From the NCBI GenBank assembly GCA_046760705.1, contig JBHIER010000204.1:1-6334 (forward strand): DNA of 6,334 nt, in the 5' to 3' direction. Origin of the DNA: JBHIER01 sp046760705 [NCBI: bacterium] (GTDB taxonomy: Bacteria; JBHIER01; G020348925). The notes beneath the pieces were generated by a model, which worked only from the letters and a program-made list of their open reading frames with translations, searched no databases and was not told the origin of the DNA. Position numbers and translations under genes: made by a program. This document shows, in pieces, positions 1 to 6,309 of the stretch; the first letter of the stretch is position 1, and each line of letters opens with the position of its first letter.

Positions 1-338
1 TCATCCGCCCGGAGCTGCGAGATCTGCGAGATCTGTGAGATCTGTGAGATCTGCCAGTTCTGGCAAAAATCGCACTGAAAATTGCAGCCCACTGTGGCCA
101 CAGAATAGCTCAGGGTGCCGGGCAGGAAATGGAAAAGTGGTTTCTTCTCAATGGGGTCGACATGCTTGGCAATCACTTTGCCGTACACCAGGGTAAACAG
201 TCTCCCTTGCCTGTTCTGGCGGACTCGGCAGATGCCCATCCCTCCCGGCCTAATTCGACACCGGTGCCCGCACAACTGACACTCAACAACATTGCCATCG
301 ATAGTTTCGTACAGCATCGCTTCTTTGGGCTCGGACAT
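1..338 (-). CDS. amrS: AmmeMemoRadiSam system radical SAM enzyme, N-terminal part (cut by window edge)
   Basis: The 112 visible residues match the N-terminus of the Memo-associated radical SAM family (AmrS/PflA-like). A cysteine set at C20, C23, C27 and C37 comes first, then the family phrase VDPIEKKPLFHFLPG around residues 60-74, then the CxxxCxxC motif at C85, C89 and C92 (CNFQCDFC) that binds the [4Fe-4S] cluster cleaving S-adenosylmethionine, followed by QNW. Family members are usually about 330-370 residues, so roughly two thirds lies beyond base 1. The ATG at 338 is preceded by GAGGTGA ten bases upstream; an in-frame stop lies a little further upstream, leaving only a GTG nine codons earlier as an alternative. 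The AMMECR1 and Memo partners are not visible here. The odd point is a run of four QIS units at residues 96-107, encoded by a 9-bp tandem repeat, where relatives as I recall them have a single unit. The substrate of this family is not established. Confidence 0.9.
   Translation of the reverse strand, partial: MSEPKEAMLYETIDGNVVECQLCGHRCRIRPGGMGICRVRQNRQGRLFTLVYGKVIAKHVDPIEKKPLFHFLPGTLSYSVATVGCNFQCDFCQNWQISQISQISQISQLRAD
15..53. repeat. 9-bp in-frame tandem repeat, 4.3 copies
   Basis: The unit CTGYGAGAT occurs four times in a row, followed by a partial CTG. The first two copies carry C and the next two carry T at position 4. Read on the minus strand it encodes QIS four times inside the radical SAM gene, starting four residues after the last cluster cysteine. 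The period is a multiple of three, so copy-number change keeps the frame. Confidence 0.95.
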
Positions 339-510: not shown

Positions 511-675
511 TTATTCACTCATTCTCTCAAATTGATCTTTTGGTGCTCCGCACTCAGGGCAGATCCAATCATCGGGTAGATCCTCAAAGGGGGTGGGGGG
601 ATCGATCCCGTTATCCGGATCCCCCTTCTCAGGATCGTAAACATACCCGCAAACAATACATTGCCATTTTTCCAT
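511..675 (-). CDS. Rubredoxin
   Basis: This is a 54-residue canonical rubredoxin, a cytoplasmic one-electron carrier with a single Fe(SCys)4 centre. The ligands are C6 and C9 in CIVCG and C39 and C42 in CPECG, with 29 residues between the pairs. Family landmarks are present: [14 protein letters not shown] at residues 11-24, [12 protein letters not shown] at 26-37, and the GAPKDQFE tail at 43-50. Length matches the usual 52-55 residues. The ATG at 675 is fixed by the family N-terminus MEKWQC and by a perfect AGGAGGTGA nine bases upstream. It stands alone, 144 bases after lipB, so it may have its own promoter or be read through. The flavo-diiron protein at 4987-6210 belongs to a family that commonly takes electrons from rubredoxin, which makes this the natural local donor; that pairing is inferred. 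Confidence 0.97.
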
Positions 676-1950: not shown

Positions 1951-2550
1951 TTACCGACCCCCTGTCGTATCCGAGACGCCACAGACATTGGTATAAAGAT
2001 AATCAGTAATTTGCGCCGCCTCCTCATGGCTTATCCAGCCGGGCAGAAAGGACCTCATCAGGCCCACCAAACGGGTCCAATCTACAGTGGTCCTGGACTT
2101 ACTGAATATCCTTTCGAGAGTGTGGCATCTTGTACATTTCACCTGTAACAGACTCCATCCCGGGGATTCCGTCTCAACTTCAGATCGCAACTCTTTTGGT
2201 TTAGTATAGTGTGAGCTTGCGACCGGGAAAAAATGGCCGGCTGAGGTCGCAACTGCCCCAAAGGCTAAGAGAAAAACAGCCAACCCAAATTTATGGATGC
2301 TGCCCATGAATTGCCGATAGAGACGAACAATCAAAATCTTGGCGGTTAAGACAACGAAGAGGCCCAGGGCAAAAATCGCATGAAAAACCGCCCGCGAAGA
2401 GAGTTCCTGCCTGGATGAAACCAAGAGAGCAATACAGAAGTAGCCTATCAAGAGGAATAATAGAACAAAGAGATATCCCGCCGTCTTATGCACTCTTCTC
2501 AAAAGTAGCGGAGGGAATCGACTCTCCTTTCTCCCTCTAAGTTCAAGCAT
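1951..2550 (-). CDS. Three-helix membrane protein with C-terminal heme c domain (putative b/c-type cytochrome)
   Basis: This 199-residue protein has three predicted membrane helices (about 24-45, 54-76 and 84-107) followed by a small cytochrome c domain with a CTRCH heme motif at 139-143. After the motif come LMRSFLPGWISHEEAAQITDYL-like features; M165 is the candidate sixth ligand. The basic N-terminus suggests N-in topology, which places the heme c domain in the periplasm. H21 and H86 would then lie at the cytoplasmic ends of helices 1 and 3, and H57 and H106 at the periplasmic side of helices 2 and 3, a layout suited to two heme b groups; this is inference. It may belong to the DUF6529-like membrane proteins, but I cannot confirm that. 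It starts 13 bases after the upstream cytochrome c gene and lacks a good Shine-Dalgarno sequence, so translation may depend on its neighbour. Confidence 0.82.
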   Translation of the reverse strand: MLELRGRKESRFPPLLLRRVHKTAGYLFVLLFLLIGYFCIALLVSSRQELSSRAVFHAIFALGLFVVLTAKILIVRLYRQFMGSIHKFGLAVFLLAFGAVATSAGHFFPVASSHYTKPKELRSEVETESPGWSLLQVKCTRCHTLERIFSKSRTTVDWTRLVGLMRSFLPGWISHEEAAQITDYLYTNVCGVSDTTGGR

Positions 2551-2563
2551 AGAGAAGGGCAGA

Positions 2564-3043
2564 TCACTTCTTCTCTTCTTCTACCTTTTCCGCCTCGATC
2601 GACGCAACGTAGGCGGTCAGCGCGGTGAGTCTCAGGTCGTCCAAAGTCAGGGGCTTGCCTTTCAAGGGGTTGACGACGCAGAAATTGATCACCTGATCCA
2701 GGGTCATGACTTTCATGGCCATGGGGAAGTATTTTGGGTATCGGGCCCCCAGATTGTCAAAAGCATCCATCGTCATTCCCTTCATCTTCATCGGGTTCGT
2801 TTTGGTGCCGCCTTCAAGATGACAGGAGTTGCAGGTCATGCCACTGGTTCCCAACTCCTTGTCGTAGAAGAGGGCTTTACCCCTCTCCACTGCCTTTGCC
2901 AGCTCGGCCTGCTGTTCAGCCGGGGTTAACATGTTTTGCTCTTCCCTCCGACCCTTCTTCTCCTGGCCGAAGGCCAAGAAGGCAATGACGAGAACAAGGG
3001 GGATGCAAAAAGCAAAGAGATAAAAAGTCTTAGACTTTCCCAT
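2564..3043 (-). CDS. Membrane-anchored or secreted monoheme cytochrome c
   Basis: This 159-residue protein has a basic start (MGKSK), a hydrophobic segment at about 5-27 that acts as signal or membrane anchor, a charged linker, and a class I-like cytochrome c domain. The heme motif is CNSCH at 71-75, within ERGKALFYDKELGTSGMTCNSCH-type context. The later stretch VINFCVVNPLKGKPL and LTALTAYVASIE resembles the cytochrome c domains of the SoxA/TsdA type, where a similar phrase precedes the last helix; C122 lies there. Seven methionines fall between 85 and 113, leaving the axial ligand undecided. The ATG at 3043 is chosen over a GTG at 3052, because the GTG lies inside the AGGAGGTGA ribosome binding site. 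It would accept or donate electrons in the periplasm; the following gene, 13 bases away, is the likely membrane partner. Confidence 0.9.
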   Translation of the reverse strand: MGKSKTFYLFAFCIPLVLVIAFLAFGQEKKGRREEQNMLTPAEQQAELAKAVERGKALFYDKELGTSGMTCNSCHLEGGTKTNPMKMKGMTMDAFDNLGARYPKYFPMAMKVMTLDQVINFCVVNPLKGKPLTLDDLRLTALTAYVASIEAEKVEEEKK

Positions 3044-3048
3044 CGTTT

Positions 3049-3057
3049 TCACCTCCT
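3049..3057 (-). promoter_or_regulatory. Shine-Dalgarno sequence deciding the cytochrome c start
   Basis: AGGAGGTGA on the minus strand sits five bases before the ATG at 3043. A GTG in the same frame at 3052-3050 overlaps this site and therefore cannot use it, so the longer 162-residue reading is unlikely. Confidence 0.8.
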
Positions 3058-3081
3058 CTCTTCAGTTTTTTGACCTTGCAA

Positions 3082-3396
3082 TTAGTCATCGCTCTCTTCC
3101 ATTAACTTTTGGGTCAACTTCTCCGCATTTCTATGATCTTTGACTCTGATATTCACCTTCTCTACCCCGTCCACCTCCTTTGCCTTTCCCATAATTTCTC
3201 TGCCAATATGAAGGGCGAAAACATCAGGGCAGAAAGGTACTGTCAGATGAAAGACTATGGAAGCCGTCTCCCCTTCCACTTTCACCTCATCGATGAGCTG
3301 ACGGGAGCCGATACTTTTCCCAAACTCAGGGTCTGTGACAGATTCAATACTCTTCAGAACCTTGCGCTCCTTGTCGGATAAATCTTGCCTTTCCAT
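3082..3396 (-). CDS. DUF59/MIP18-like iron-sulfur assembly-type protein
   Basis: This 104-residue soluble protein matches the MIP18/DUF59 (SufT/PaaD-like) fold. It has the family DPE signature at 22-24 in SVTDPEFGKSIG, LIDEVKVEGETASIVFHLT at 34-52, the conserved cysteine C56 in LTVPFCPD, and the closing VDGVEKVNIRV strand at 75-85. Members help in iron-sulfur cluster maturation (SufT, Cia2) or in phenylacetyl-CoA oxygenase assembly (PaaD), and many bacterial ones are uncharacterised. Its ATG follows directly after the stop codon of the SRPBCC gene with no gap, and AGGAGAG inside the end of that gene serves as its ribosome binding site, so the two are translationally coupled. A role in maturing a metal centre of a neighbouring protein is possible but not shown. 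The acidic ESDD tail is unremarkable. Confidence 0.85.
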   Translation of the reverse strand: MERQDLSDKERKVLKSIESVTDPEFGKSIGSRQLIDEVKVEGETASIVFHLTVPFCPDVFALHIGREIMGKAKEVDGVEKVNIRVKDHRNAEKLTQKLMEESDD

Positions 3397-3870
3397 TTAG
3401 CTCTCCTCACGCCTGCCTGTACCCCGAGGGTCGGGGCAGACAGGTCTGATAAAATTTTCCAGATTGCTGAAGAACTTACCCACTTGCCCTTTGATATTGG
3501 CAGCCAACAGAGGGCTGATCGTTACTCTTAAAGGTCCACTGACAGTCAGACGTAATTGCAATGTGAGGTTTACCTCCTTCGGTCCGGTCTCCTCGATAAG
3601 AAAATTTCCCTCGGCAAAGAAATTGGGGCCGTGCGCCTTCCAGCCAATTTTGCCGGAGTCGTAATTTTCGCTCACTATTTCTGCAGTGAGAGATGGGCTG
3701 GAGGTGAACTTCGCCATCGGCTCTCTGCTCAGCCACTTTATCTCGTCGTCCTCACATTCCACTCCCTTGACAAAATGAAAAAATCGCCCGAAGACTTTTA
3801 GGTCTGTGAGGCACTCATACAGAGTTCTCTTATCAATTTCGAAAGCTTTTGTCCTGGTGTGCTCGGCCAT
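3397..3870 (-). CDS. SRPBCC (START/Bet v 1-like) fold protein
   Basis: This 157-residue protein looks like an SRPBCC ligand-binding fold: an N-terminal strand HTRTKAFEIDKRTLYECLTD leading into a helix, central strands including KIGWKAHGPNFFAEGNFLIEE and VNLTLQLRLTVSGPL, and a long C-terminal helix LLAANIKGQVGKFFSNLENF. Such proteins bind hydrophobic ligands or, like CoxG, assist enzyme maturation; I cannot assign the ligand. The ATG at 3870 is preferred because GAGGT lies at a suitable distance upstream; an in-frame TTG at 3876 would sit directly against that site and overlap the M24 stop. Two bases separate the M24 stop from this ATG. The last dozen residues (from about PVCPDPRG onward) are encoded by a palindromic repeat and are probably not part of the ancestral fold. 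Confidence 0.75.
   Translation of the reverse strand: MAEHTRTKAFEIDKRTLYECLTDLKVFGRFFHFVKGVECEDDEIKWLSREPMAKFTSSPSLTAEIVSENYDSGKIGWKAHGPNFFAEGNFLIEETGPKEVNLTLQLRLTVSGPLRVTISPLLAANIKGQVGKFFSNLENFIRPVCPDPRGTGRREES
3412..3444. repeat. Palindromic repeat element inside the 3' end of the SRPBCC gene
   Basis: The plus strand reads CCTGT at 3416-3420 and CCCCGA at 3422-3427, then a GGG loop, then TCGGGG at 3431-3436 and ACAGG at 3440-3444. This gives an 11-bp stem with a small asymmetric bulge. Its layout resembles dispersed palindromic repeats with a CCCCGA..TCGGGG core that I recall from many environmental genomes. It is read in frame as the C-terminal tail of the SRPBCC protein and ends just before the ribosome binding site of the DUF59 gene. 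Confidence 0.8.
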
Positions 3871-3872
3871 CT

Positions 3873-4985
3873 TCAAACCTCTATCAACCCGTTCTCAAAG
3901 TGCGTCAATTGCCTCAAACCATCTTTCAGAACATGGTAGGTGTTTTCAAAGCGGACCCCTCCAATTTTCGGTATGGAAAAGACCGCATGCCCAATGGAAA
4001 CGGTCATATTTTCCTGAAAAGATAGCATGACATCGTCGGGGAAAATTGTGGGAAAGGGCACCTCCTCAAAATCTAACCCGATACCGTGCATCATCCCTCT
4101 GACATAGTACTCTCCCAAACCCATCTCTTCCGCCTTTTGAGACGCTTTCTCCTCACATTGGTAAATCTGTTTACCCACCGCTATATTGTCGATAAATTCT
4201 TTTTGTATCTTTTCGTACGCGGTATAGATTTTCTTAACCTCGTTCTTCGCTGGGCCGATGGTAAAGGATCGGCAAATATCCCCACAATATCCTTGATATT
4301 TCGTTCCGACATCGATCAACACTATATCTCCCTTTTCAATCTTTTTATTCGTGGCCAGTCCATGGAGCCACCCAGACCGGTATCCTGAATTGACGAAGGT
4401 GGGAAAAGAGAGTCCATCGCCTCCGGCCTCCATGACCGAAATTTCGATCTCCCAGGCCACCTCCTTTTCGGTCATCCCTGCCCTCAAGACGTCAGCCGCC
4501 TTTTTCATGGCCGCAGTTGCTATCTTACACGCCTGTTCTATCAGGGCGATCTCCTCATCCGATTTTATCATCCTCAGGGGAGAGACAATCTTTTTGGAAT
4601 CGACTATCTCGACATTGGGATTGGCCATCTTAAATCTTTCCAGCATAAAAGCAGGGAGATGAAAACCGAACTCAATACCCATCACCGGTTTCTCCTTCCC
4701 CAGCCCATTGAAGAACTGGATGATAGCCAGCATCATCTCGTGTAACCCTCGATAGGTGGTAATATTCTCGATCCAGGATATCCTCTGAACCTCATCCTTT
4801 TCGCCCTCAAAGACAAAAAGGATTGGATCGCCCTTCTGGGGGATGAGAGCCCGTGGCTGCTTTCTCATATCACCGGTGAAATAGTAGTAATTTGCTAAAT
4901 CGAAAGCCATAAAGACATCGATCTCATCCTGCTGCATGTTACTTTGTAGTTGCTCGACTCTCTGTCTATAAATTTTGTCGGTCAT
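3873..4985 (-). CDS. M24 family metallopeptidase homologue (Xaa-Pro aminopeptidase/creatinase-like)
   Basis: This 370-residue protein has the two-domain plan of aminopeptidase P, prolidase and creatinase: an N-terminal creatinase-like domain (about 1-135) and a pita-bread catalytic domain (about 145-368). Catalytic-domain landmarks are FPTFVNSG..WLHG with H208, VLIDVGTKYQGYCGDICRSF with metal aspartates D225 and D236, MMHGIGLDFEEVP with H300, and GGVRFENTYHVL with E347. The other glutamate ligand, normally in an EPG motif, aligns with H333 in SIGHAVFSIP, so the metal site may be altered. Lengths fit the family (about 350-400). The ATG at 4985 starts one base after the FprA stop, with GGAGG inside the end of fprA, so the genes are coupled. 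It could be a peptidase of changed specificity or a hydrolase acting on a non-peptide substrate as creatinase does; the substrate cannot be told. Confidence 0.88.
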   Translation of the reverse strand: MTDKIYRQRVEQLQSNMQQDEIDVFMAFDLANYYYFTGDMRKQPRALIPQKGDPILFVFEGEKDEVQRISWIENITTYRGLHEMMLAIIQFFNGLGKEKPVMGIEFGFHLPAFMLERFKMANPNVEIVDSKKIVSPLRMIKSDEEIALIEQACKIATAAMKKAADVLRAGMTEKEVAWEIEISVMEAGGDGLSFPTFVNSGYRSGWLHGLATNKKIEKGDIVLIDVGTKYQGYCGDICRSFTIGPAKNEVKKIYTAYEKIQKEFIDNIAVGKQIYQCEEKASQKAEEMGLGEYYVRGMMHGIGLDFEEVPFPTIFPDDVMLSFQENMTVSIGHAVFSIPKIGGVRFENTYHVLKDGLRQLTHFENGLIEV

Positions 4986-4986
4986 C

Positions 4987-6210
4987 TCATCCTCCCTTCA
5001 TCTCATAACCGTTGCCGCGTTTTACGATTTCTGCAAATTTTGCTCCGAACTCCTCTCCCCTTTTCAGATCCTCATGGGTTGGGCCGCCGGCAAATTGAAA
5101 AGAATCCATCACGTCCCATTTTAGAGGCTTTACGATCTGTTCAAAATGTCTCTGCGCTCCCCCGCTCCATCCGAAACTGCCGAATGTGGCGACTCTTTTA
5201 TTTAACACACGCTTCTGGACCGCCATATCCAACACCTGAGCCACTGGTGGAAAAAGCGTGGTCTCATAGGTGGGAGCCCCAATCACCACCCCTGCTTTCG
5301 TCCACAATGACGGGAGAATGTAACTGACATGAGTTCTTGTGGCGTCAAAGATTTCGAGGGGTACTCCAATCCTGGATATGCCCTGAGCCACGGCGTTCAT
5401 CATCGTTTCAGTGTTGCCGTACATCGAGCCATAGATAAGGGTTATACCAGCCTCCGTTCTCCCGGTGGCGTATTCAGCCCACTTCTTATACAATTCGACA
5501 ATGAGGTGTGGGTTCTTTCGCCAGATAAGCCCGTGGGACGGGGCCACAATATTGATAGGCACATCGGCCAATGTATCGACAGCTTTGAGTACCATACTGC
5601 TAAATCTGGCTATAATATTGACAAAATAGCGCAGCGATTCTTTTTCATAGAAATCGAAATCTGTGCACACGTCATCAAAGATGGCCCCGCGGAGTGCCCC
5701 GTATCCGCCAAAAGCATCGCAGGAAAAGAGAATCCGATCCGACGTCTCATAGGTCATGATTGTCTCAGGCCAGTGCACGTAAGGAGTCTCAAAAAACTTC
5801 AAGATCTTTTTACCCAAAGCGAGGATCTCTCCGTCTTGAACGACCTTGATATTCTCGGTAATACCGTAGAACGACTCCAGCATCTCCTTAGTCTTCTGAG
5901 AGCCCAAAATGGTTACGTTTGGGGCTATCTTTCTCATGGTACTCAAGACACCGGAATGATCCGGTTCTATGTGGTTGATGATGACATAATCGATCATTGA
6001 AATATCTGTAACCTCTTCGATTTGATGAAGGAATTCGTCCACTTTAAACGATTTGGTCAAATCGACGAGTGCTTTCTTCTCGTCGTTTATAAGATAACTG
6101 TTGTAGGATACCCCTTCCTGCGTAATCGGCCACAACCCTTCAAAGAGGTCGGTGGTTCTGTCGTTGACTCCTATCCAATAGACGTCAGGTTTAATTTCTA
6201 TTGCTGGCAT
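4987..6210 (-). CDS. fprA: A-type flavo-diiron protein (FprA / rubredoxin:oxygen oxidoreductase)
   Basis: This cytoplasmic enzyme reduces O2 to water, or NO to N2O, using a diiron site and FMN, with electrons usually from rubredoxin. The 407-residue protein carries an N-terminal metallo-beta-lactamase-like domain (1-240) and a flavodoxin domain (about 246-395). The diiron ligands are complete: H80, E82 and D84 in NHIEPDHSG, H146 in YVHWPE, D165 in FSCDAFGG, and H226 in APSHG, with spacing like that of Desulfovibrio gigas ROO. The FMN phosphate loop is IYGSMYGNTETM (249-260), and FGSFGWSGGAQ follows near 344-354. There is no C-terminal rubredoxin or flavin reductase fusion, so it is class A. 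The ATG at 6210 is preferred over a GTG at 6219, which overlaps the GAGAGGTG ribosome binding site. It heads the tight operon that continues with the M24 gene. O2 versus NO preference cannot be read from sequence. Confidence 0.97.
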   Translation of the reverse strand: MPAIEIKPDVYWIGVNDRTTDLFEGLWPITQEGVSYNSYLINDEKKALVDLTKSFKVDEFLHQIEEVTDISMIDYVIINHIEPDHSGVLSTMRKIAPNVTILGSQKTKEMLESFYGITENIKVVQDGEILALGKKILKFFETPYVHWPETIMTYETSDRILFSCDAFGGYGALRGAIFDDVCTDFDFYEKESLRYFVNIIARFSSMVLKAVDTLADVPINIVAPSHGLIWRKNPHLIVELYKKWAEYATGRTEAGITLIYGSMYGNTETMMNAVAQGISRIGVPLEIFDATRTHVSYILPSLWTKAGVVIGAPTYETTLFPPVAQVLDMAVQKRVLNKRVATFGSFGWSGGAQRHFEQIVKPLKWDVMDSFQFAGGPTHEDLKRGEEFGAKFAEIVKRGNGYEMKGG

Positions 6211-6263: not shown

Positions 6264-6309
6264 CTGTCATTCCGGCCTGTCTCCCACCCGTCATTTCCCA
6301 CCTGTCATT
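6264..6309. repeat. Imperfect 14-bp repeats upstream of fprA
   Basis: TCCCACCCGTCATT (6282-6295) and TCCCACCTGTCATT (6296-6309) are adjacent copies with one mismatch, and CTGTCATTC at 6264-6272 is a third partial copy. They lie 54 to 99 bases before the fprA start, where promoter or operator sites would be expected. GTCATTCC-rich sequence is also common in dispersed intergenic repeats, so regulation is only a possibility. The rest of the 6211-6334 stretch shows no convincing promoter. Confidence 0.7.

What the first reader, a model, noticed from the sequence alone, without database searches (positions are those of the whole stretch)
2564..6210. Six-gene cluster joining a flavo-diiron protein, M24 homologue, SRPBCC, DUF59 and two cytochromes
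The first four genes have stop-to-start gaps of 1, 2 and 0 bases, and the cytochromes follow after 38 and 13. Flavo-diiron proteins usually stand alone or beside rubredoxin and rubrerythrin; I do not know a described system with this set. A working idea is an O2/NO detoxification unit (FprA) with accessory proteins for metal-site maturation (DUF59, SRPBCC) and a membrane electron path. The gene order and spacing are seen; the shared function is inferred.
Basis: partly seen in the sequence, partly recalled or inferred. Interest (0 to 1): 0.6.

Follow-up and report, generated by a model that had tools for sequence, protein, structure and literature searches.

The report
Oxygen-scavenging enzyme with unusual operon partners
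A bacterial oxygen- or nitric-oxide-removing enzyme sits at the head of a tight four-gene run with three oddly matched proteins, one an altered peptidase relative; the two cytochrome genes after it may be a separate unit, and the same set was not seen in the other genome regions examined.

Summary
The six genes exist on the minus strand with the stated gaps. The given coordinates hold only five; the sixth, a membrane cytochrome, is at 1951-2550.

The FDP is a two-domain class A type with all seven diiron ligands. The M24 protein is probably not an ordinary Xaa-Pro peptidase: the HExP His is Glu307, and the metal-ligand Glu of (I/V)EPG is lost or shifted (Gly332-His333). It falls in a supported variant clade with PDB 9kw9 and four proteins of the Chloroflexota sample.

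The cytochromes may be a separate extracytoplasmic module: a SoxA/TsdA-type protein and a DUF6529-type membrane cytochrome. The pair recurs, without an FDP, in one of nine loci.

None of 13 FDP neighbourhoods, 51 short FDP loci (12 genes shared with the 13) or eight M24-hit stretches carries the set. The window's own genome was not held. I read it as a class A FDP operon with unusual partners, seen once, its shared function inferred.

The parts
4987..6210 (-). class A flavo-diiron protein (FprA/ROO type), 407 aa
   Evidence: PF19583 ODP 89.7 bits (cut-off 27.2), PF00258 flavodoxin 34.1 (25). Ligands H80, E82, D84, H85, H146, D165, H226. Best PDB match 'Anaerobic nitric oxide reductase flavorubredoxin', 243.9 bits.
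3873..4985 (-). M24 (creatinase/prolidase) homologue, 370 aa, variant active site (E307 for the HExP His; G332-H333 at the (I/V)EPG Glu)
   Evidence: PF00557 169.3 bits, PF01321 61 bits. Ligand table over 75 rows, tree, pairwise check.
3397..3870 (-). SRPBCC/START-like small protein, 157 aa
   Evidence: PF10604 at E 0.0035, below its cut-off. AlphaFold model of modest confidence (pLDDT 63.5) with 261 PDB matches at E <= 0.001; the listed ones include CoxG, Bet v 1-like and START proteins.
3082..3396 (-). DUF59/MIP18-like protein (FeS_assembly_P), 104 aa
   Evidence: PF01883 47.6 bits (cut-off 23.5). NCBIfam SUF_assoc 30.2 of 143.4 and PaaD 31.9 of 180 needed.
2564..3043 (-). probably exported SoxA/TsdA-type monohaem cytochrome c, 159 aa; CNSCH at 71-75, conserved Cys122
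   Evidence: PF21342 49.1 bits (cut-off 27). Cys122 kept in 9 of 9 relatives. Export is read by eye from the N-terminus.
1951..2550 (-). membrane cytochrome: three predicted helices with H21 and H57, C-terminal CTRCH; DUF6529-like
   Evidence: PF20139 30.0 bits (cut-off 23.3). Low-confidence model with helices 15-45, 53-80, 86-113, pLDDT 57.9. 29% identity to the neighbour of the cytochrome c homologue in L164; that neighbour's own PF20139 score, 21.3, is below the cut-off.
511..675 (-). rubredoxin, 54 aa, likely electron carrier to the FDP
   Evidence: Sequence; PF00301 85.9 bits. It lies 4.3 kb downstream of the FDP gene and is not in the tight run.

Best explanation
Positions 6210-3082 are most likely one transcription unit of four closely spaced genes. 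The first product is a class A flavo-diiron O2 (or NO) reductase that takes electrons from rubredoxin, very likely the one encoded at 511-675, and makes water (or N2O). The other three are probably cytosolic: an M24-fold protein with an altered metal site that is probably not an Xaa-Pro peptidase, a ligand-binding SRPBCC-type protein, and a DUF59 protein of the kind linked to Fe-S handling. I think they form a small unit of unknown substrate whose oxygen-sensitive part is protected by, or co-regulated with, the oxygen scavenger. The two cytochrome genes behind it are probably a separate extracytoplasmic redox module placed next to the operon. Shown: genes, spacing, families, ligand residues, the variant M24 clade, and one recurrence of the cytochrome pair without an FDP. 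Inferred: co-transcription, rubredoxin as donor, protection, separateness of the cytochromes, and the role of the M24/SRPBCC/DUF59 trio.
For: Gaps of 1, 2 and 0 bases with SD-like sequences. All seven FDP ligands present, also in 5 of 5 closest FDPs found, which are 58-71% identical. In three of those five, oxygen-defence genes lie near: desulfoferrodoxin and a DJ-1/PfpI protein in L122; a FUR-family regulator, catalase and a ferritin-like protein in L124; three rubrerythrin-like proteins, desulfoferrodoxin, two rubredoxins and a rubredoxin-reductase-like protein in L125. Rubredoxin lies within about 1.5 kb in 12 of 51 FDP loci and in the window. M24 variant: E307 aligns to the canonical His in 49 of 49 pairwise alignments, and the variant clade has support 100/99. 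A rubredoxin gene lies 0.8 kb downstream of a variant M24, on the same strand, in L170, and an FDP lies 3.2 kb from another in L136. The cytochrome pair occurs without an FDP in L164.
Against: No second genome with the four-gene order was found: 0 of 13 FDP neighbourhoods, 0 of 51 short FDP loci, 12 of whose genes are also among the 13, and 0 of 8 M24-hit stretches. The close spacing could therefore be a young, functionally neutral join. Rubredoxin is 4.3 kb away with lipB, a thiamine-binding protein gene and the cytochromes among the genes between. In two of the five closest FDP neighbourhoods I saw no oxygen-defence genes: L126 by reading translations only; L123 could not be read well because long frames on both strands dominated. 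I saw no NADH:rubredoxin reductase in the window. The cytochrome pair was adjacent in only 1 of 9 cytochrome c loci.
Confidence: 0.5

Rival explanations
1. A chance run of unrelated housekeeping and stress genes: the FDP stands alone functionally and the short gaps only reflect a compact genome and a long same-strand run.
For: All ten genes in the window run the same way. None of M24, SRPBCC, DUF59 or the cytochromes was found in the FDP loci examined, and none of SRPBCC, DUF59 or the cytochromes in the eight M24-hit stretches at E 1e-3. The variant M24 stands without these partners in the four loci of the Chloroflexota sample.
Against: Three successive gaps of 1, 2 and 0 bases stand out against 124-145 bases in three of the four junctions after the membrane cytochrome. 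The window's own lineage could not be searched.
Confidence: 0.33
2. One reading: one six-gene O2/NO detoxification unit in which DUF59 and SRPBCC mature the FDP metal site and the cytochromes feed it electrons from the membrane.
For: Gene order and gaps; FDP ligands intact; DUF59 belongs to an Fe-S assembly family.
Against: FDPs are cytosolic (family knowledge), whereas the first cytochrome looks exported and is SoxA/TsdA-type with a conserved Cys. The cytochrome pair occurs once without an FDP. Close FDPs have none of these helpers near them. The general donors named in PMC6033852 are rubredoxins and NADH/FAD-dependent oxidoreductases (passages).
Confidence: 0.07
3. The operon's real business is a catabolic or biosynthetic step carried out by the variant M24 (a hydrolase or lyase, as creatinase is in this fold) with SRPBCC and DUF59. 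The FDP is a co-regulated guard or even a redox partner in that step.
For: The window M24 keeps five of the seven compared positions and changes two. Non-peptidase M24 relatives match it far below cut-off or weakly: ectoine hydrolase 92.1 of 575 bits and DMSP lyase 39.9 of 600, creatinase 1chm 34 bits. A redox partner lies near a variant M24 in two other genomes: an FDP 31% identical 3.2 kb away in L136, and a rubredoxin on the same strand 0.8 kb downstream in L170.
Against: I recognised no substrate or pathway gene in the window. In L136 two genes on the other strand lie between. Rubredoxin and FDP genes also lie near many other genes, so two of eight may be chance. The nearest solved relative, 9kw9, has lost both Asp positions as well.
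Confidence: 0.1

Closest known systems
Class A flavo-diiron proteins (PDB 1e5d rubredoxin:oxygen oxidoreductase, 1ycf, 6frm F420H2 oxidase; names, organisms Desulfovibrio, Moorella and methanogens recalled)
   Same: Two-domain architecture, all seven diiron ligands, similar length (407 against 398-410 aa); rubredoxin in the window
   Different: Tight run with M24, SRPBCC and DUF59 genes, not seen in 13 neighbourhoods and 51 short loci
M24 family 'proline dipeptidase' PDB 9kw9/9kwa
   Same: Match over residues 3-361, 196.6 bits, the best in the PDB; same variant clade (sister at 97/89, but 9kw9 is a long branch); both have Glu at the HExP His position
   Different: The window protein keeps both Asp ligands that 9kw9 has lost. 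The organism of 9kw9 was not shown, and no paper on it was found.
Canonical prolidase/aminopeptidase P (M24B)
   Same: Creatinase_N plus M24 domains; H208, D225, D236, H300, E347 at the canonical positions
   Different: HExP His is Glu307; the (I/V)EPG Glu is lost or shifted, Gly332-His333
SoxA/TsdA Cys-ligated cytochromes
   Same: PF21342 above cut-off; a Cys at the SoxA position in the phmmer alignment to 1h31, present in 9 of 9 relatives
   Different: One haem motif and 159 aa, where the SoxA and TsdA chains matched have 252-275 aa; below NCBI's SoxA cut-off (55.9 of 110)

Membership tests
Class A flavo-diiron protein | metallo-beta-lactamase-like plus flavodoxin domain, no further domain | tested here: met
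   PF19583 at 37-230 and PF00258 at 261-371 of the 410-aa frame, both above cut-off; the only other family above cut-off is the overlapping PF00753
Class A flavo-diiron protein | seven diiron ligands H-x-E-x-D-H, H, D, H | tested here: met
   H80, E82, D84, H85, H146, D165, H226; the same residue types, each three positions on, are listed for a C. difficile FDP in PMC6033852 (passage)
Class A flavo-diiron protein | O2 or NO reductase activity with rubredoxin | not testable with these tools
   A rubredoxin gene is present; activity needs the bench
Xaa-Pro peptidase (M24B) | five metal ligands Asp, Asp, His, Glu, Glu (named for E. coli PepQ in PMC4213023, passage) | tested here: not met
   Four of five kept; the first Glu is Gly332 in 35 of 53 pairwise alignments, and in the other 18 it fell at neither Gly332 nor His333. 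The multiple alignment sets it beside a gap, against His333. His333 could serve as a substitute.
Xaa-Pro peptidase (M24B) | second active-site His of the HExP motif (role recalled) | tested here: not met
   Glu307 in 49 of 49 pairwise alignments
SRPBCC superfamily | helix-grip fold | tested here: met
   One strand, two helices, four strands and a long C-terminal helix in the model; 261 PDB matches at E <= 0.001. The model's pLDDT is only 63.5, residues 34-59 are of very low confidence, and Pfam is below cut-off.
DUF59 / MIP18 family | FeS_assembly_P domain | tested here: met
   47.6 bits, cut-off 23.5
SufT or PaaD | NCBIfam SUF_assoc or PaaD cut-off | tested here: not met
   30.2 of 143.4; 31.9 of 180
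SoxA/TsdA cytochromes | domain PF21342 with the Cys haem-ligand position | tested here: met
   49.1 bits; Cys122. Ligation itself was not tested.
SoxA proper | NCBIfam thiosulf_SoxA cut-off | tested here: not met
   55.9 of 110 bits

The most novel reading that the evidence does not exclude
The M24 variant, with Glu at the His site and Gly-His at the Glu site, is a new, non-peptidase metal enzyme. Together with the SRPBCC and DUF59 proteins it carries out an oxygen-sensitive reaction, and the flavo-diiron protein in the same operon is its dedicated oxygen guard or redox partner.
Probability: 0.12. Interest if true: 0.65.

Novelty: new variant of a known kind. Interest (0 to 1): 0.33.

Why it matters
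If the four-gene unit is real, it ties a well-studied oxygen scavenger to three proteins that I did not find linked with it in the papers I could search (listings only). It also gives a handle on an M24 group that carries the name 'proline dipeptidase' in the PDB yet has changes at two of the seven active-site positions compared. That group is the most testable part. If the unit is a chance join, the finding is ordinary apart from the M24 group.

Tried and rejected
Rejected: (1) the six genes as one functional unit, because the cytochromes are of another type and the pair occurs once without the rest; this rests on one locus of nine. (2) The idea that rubredoxin is absent: it is in the window. 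(3) M24 as an ordinary peptidase, on ligand grounds. (4) A DUF59 hit in L144 (35.6% over 45 aa, E 0.001): it lies in a long frame with no such gene evident and drops out at the E 1e-3 setting. (5) The FDP in L136 as firm support: it is only 31% identical, and two opposite-strand genes lie between.

Led nowhere: the genome-contig scan with M24 gave 69 relatives, all at 36% or less in the best segment. None of the 69 held SRPBCC, DUF59 or cytochrome matches at E 1e-4. Two (L036, L051) held weak FDP-like matches of 25-27%, two (L048, L061) radical SAM matches, and one (L064) a rubredoxin. SRPBCC searches gave 1 of 395 genomes in the Desulfobacterota sample (E 1.1e-4, L070, 3.2 kb held) and 1 of 191 in the Chloroflexota sample (E 8.5e-4, L169), neither with the cluster. 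M24 in 119 genomes around an archaeal locus gave none at E 1e-40, and the tool warned that an empty answer shows nothing. FDP in 60 genomes around the Latescibacterota locus gave 39% at best. LipB did not place the window in a phylum: 11 of 21 genomes matched, the best-scoring at 45% and none above 46%. The plasmid search with M24 gave 836 records, all under 60%, the five listed at 28-29%. Promoter and terminator scans gave fewer sites than the mean of shuffles, and Rfam gave none. The membrane cytochrome model was judged too poor for a fold search (pLDDT 57.9). For 9kw9 no paper was found; the four hits are unrelated by title.

Searches kept only M24 matches at E 1e-45 or better. One search had matches in 135 of 198 genomes, but only 30 loci were held and read.
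Full report
Observation. I find ten genes in the window, all on the minus strand: FDP 6210-4987, M24 4985-3873, SRPBCC 3870-3397, DUF59 3396-3082, cytochrome c 3043-2564, membrane cytochrome 2550-1951, a TIGR00106 thiamine-binding protein 1826-1521, lipB 1506-820, rubredoxin 675-511 and the start of an AmmeMemoRadiSam radical SAM gene from 365 off the window's end (families). The stated gaps of 1, 2, 0, 38 and 13 bases are right for the ATG starts. The coordinates given leave out the sixth gene.

The FDP. It carries the two core domains and nothing else. The best PDB matches are flavorubredoxins and the nitric oxide reductase 1ycf. The seven diiron ligands are H80, E82, D84, H85, H146, D165 and H226, the same types as listed for a C. 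difficile FDP (PMC6033852, passages). Five FDPs at 58-71% identity were found, three in 198 genomes of the Desulfobacterota sample and two in 151 of the Chloroflexota sample. The next listed ones are at 45% or less. The ligands are kept in all five. In three of the five, desulfoferrodoxin, rubrerythrin- or ferritin-like proteins, catalase or rubredoxins lie near. In L126 I saw none by reading translations, and L123 was not readable. So this FDP type often sits among ordinary oxygen-defence genes.

Is the neighbourhood shared? In 13 stretches of 11-20 kb around the best FDPs (12 genomes), no M24, SRPBCC, DUF59 or cytochrome relative was found by tblastn at E 1e-3; L125 held two rubredoxins, and L128 and L130 a radical SAM match each. 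In the 51 shorter FDP loci (about 1.5 kb each side, less at contig ends; 12 of the genes are also in the 13), 0 had any of these and 12 had rubredoxin. From the M24 side, the 69 loci of the genome scan had none of SRPBCC, DUF59 or the cytochromes. Eight further M24 hits were found: four in 251 genomes of the Chloroflexota sample, one in 148 of the Desulfobacterota sample and three in 249 around a Clostridia locus. Stretches of 9.7-19.9 kb around all eight held no SRPBCC, DUF59 or cytochrome at E 1e-3. Of the eight, one (L136) has an FDP 3.2 kb away with two opposite genes between, one (L170) has a rubredoxin 0.8 kb downstream on the same strand, and one (L146) has a lipB-like match 4.3 kb away. 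The window's own genome is not held and its phylum stayed unknown, so the most informative relatives were out of reach.

The M24 protein. Over 75 aligned M24 rows, 54 have the canonical pattern, while 9 have Glu in place of the HExP His: the window, 9kw9, L143-L146, L136, L147 and L149. Another 12, all gut Clostridia or Oscillospiraceae loci, are altered in a different way. One of the eight hits above (L148) is canonical. E307 is the aligned residue in 49 of 49 pairwise alignments. The first metal Glu is replaced by Gly332 in 35 of 53 pairwise alignments, and 18 were uninformative. The multiple alignment instead puts a gap there and sets the canonical Glu against His333. The tree of 38 rows puts the nine in one group (100/99) against 29 others, and the window with 9kw9 and L143-L146 (95/91); 9kw9 is a long branch, so its exact place is unsure. 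The window protein keeps both Asp ligands, L143-L146 lose the second, and 9kw9 loses both. I conclude that it is not a standard Xaa-Pro peptidase. Whether it is a metal enzyme at all is open.

SRPBCC and DUF59. The SRPBCC assignment rests on a weak Pfam match and on a single-sequence model of modest confidence, whose 50 listed PDB matches include CoxG, START, Bet v 1-like, plant hormone receptor and aromatase/cyclase proteins. It says 'ligand-binding fold', no more. The DUF59 protein passes Pfam but not the SUF or PaaD models.

The cytochromes. The first has, by eye, a signal-like N-terminus, one CxxCH and the SoxA/TsdA domain. Its Cys122 aligns with a SoxA cysteine and is present in 9 of 9 relatives, from the 9 of 198 genomes that matched. 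In TsdA a cysteine is the catalytic haem ligand (PMC4423706, passages); that Cys122 is its counterpart is inferred, not aligned to TsdA here. The second has three predicted helices, with H21 and H57 conserved in its one relative, and a C-terminal c-haem motif. In L164, one of the nine cytochrome c loci, the two homologues are adjacent in the same order, with no FDP, M24, SRPBCC or DUF59 found in the 12 kb held, apart from a 23% FDP-like hit at E 0.05. In the other eight no membrane cytochrome relative was found; in four of them (L160, L161, L163, L166) a gene that reads as multihaem follows the cytochrome c (only L160's was checked with Pfam, a c554-type match). This leans towards a separate module but does not settle it.

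Verdict. A class A FDP heads a probable four-gene operon with three unusual partners. The cytochromes are probably separate, and a rubredoxin gene is nearby. The set is a single case so far. The literature searches for FDP with SRPBCC (0 papers) and for any two of FDP, Xaa-Pro and DUF59 (2 papers, both Thermococcus proteomics by title and abstract start, not opened) show no described system, within an open-licence library only.

Noticed in passing
   Followed up: yes
L170 8446-10559: A rubredoxin gene lies 0.8 kb downstream of a variant M24 gene on the same strand in a genome of the sample around a Clostridia locus; a cupin-like frame follows.
   Followed up: partly
window 15-62: A 9-base tandem repeat inside the radical SAM gene encodes about four ISQ units right after the CxxxCxxC motif; it may be a repeat expansion in the coding frame.
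   Followed up: no
window 6282-6309 and 1893-1919: Short tandem repeats in the gaps before the FDP gene and after the membrane cytochrome gene, perhaps marking the ends of the unit.
   Followed up: no
L144 6611-9808, L146 4182-6153: Two variant M24 genes of the Chloroflexota sample lie beside a groEL-like and a groES-like frame (read from the translations, no family search).
   Followed up: no
L030, L034, L042, L043, L047, L049, L053, L054, L057, L059, L060, L062: Twelve gut Clostridia/Oscillospiraceae M24 homologues have changes at most of the compared positions, both Asp ligands included (pattern IQSHG-E), and form another possible pseudo-peptidase group.
   Followed up: no
L160, L161, L163, L166: The SoxA/TsdA-like cytochrome c is followed by a gene that reads as a multihaem cytochrome in four genomes of the Desulfobacterota sample, and these cytochromes carry repeated NPC motifs.
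   Followed up: partly
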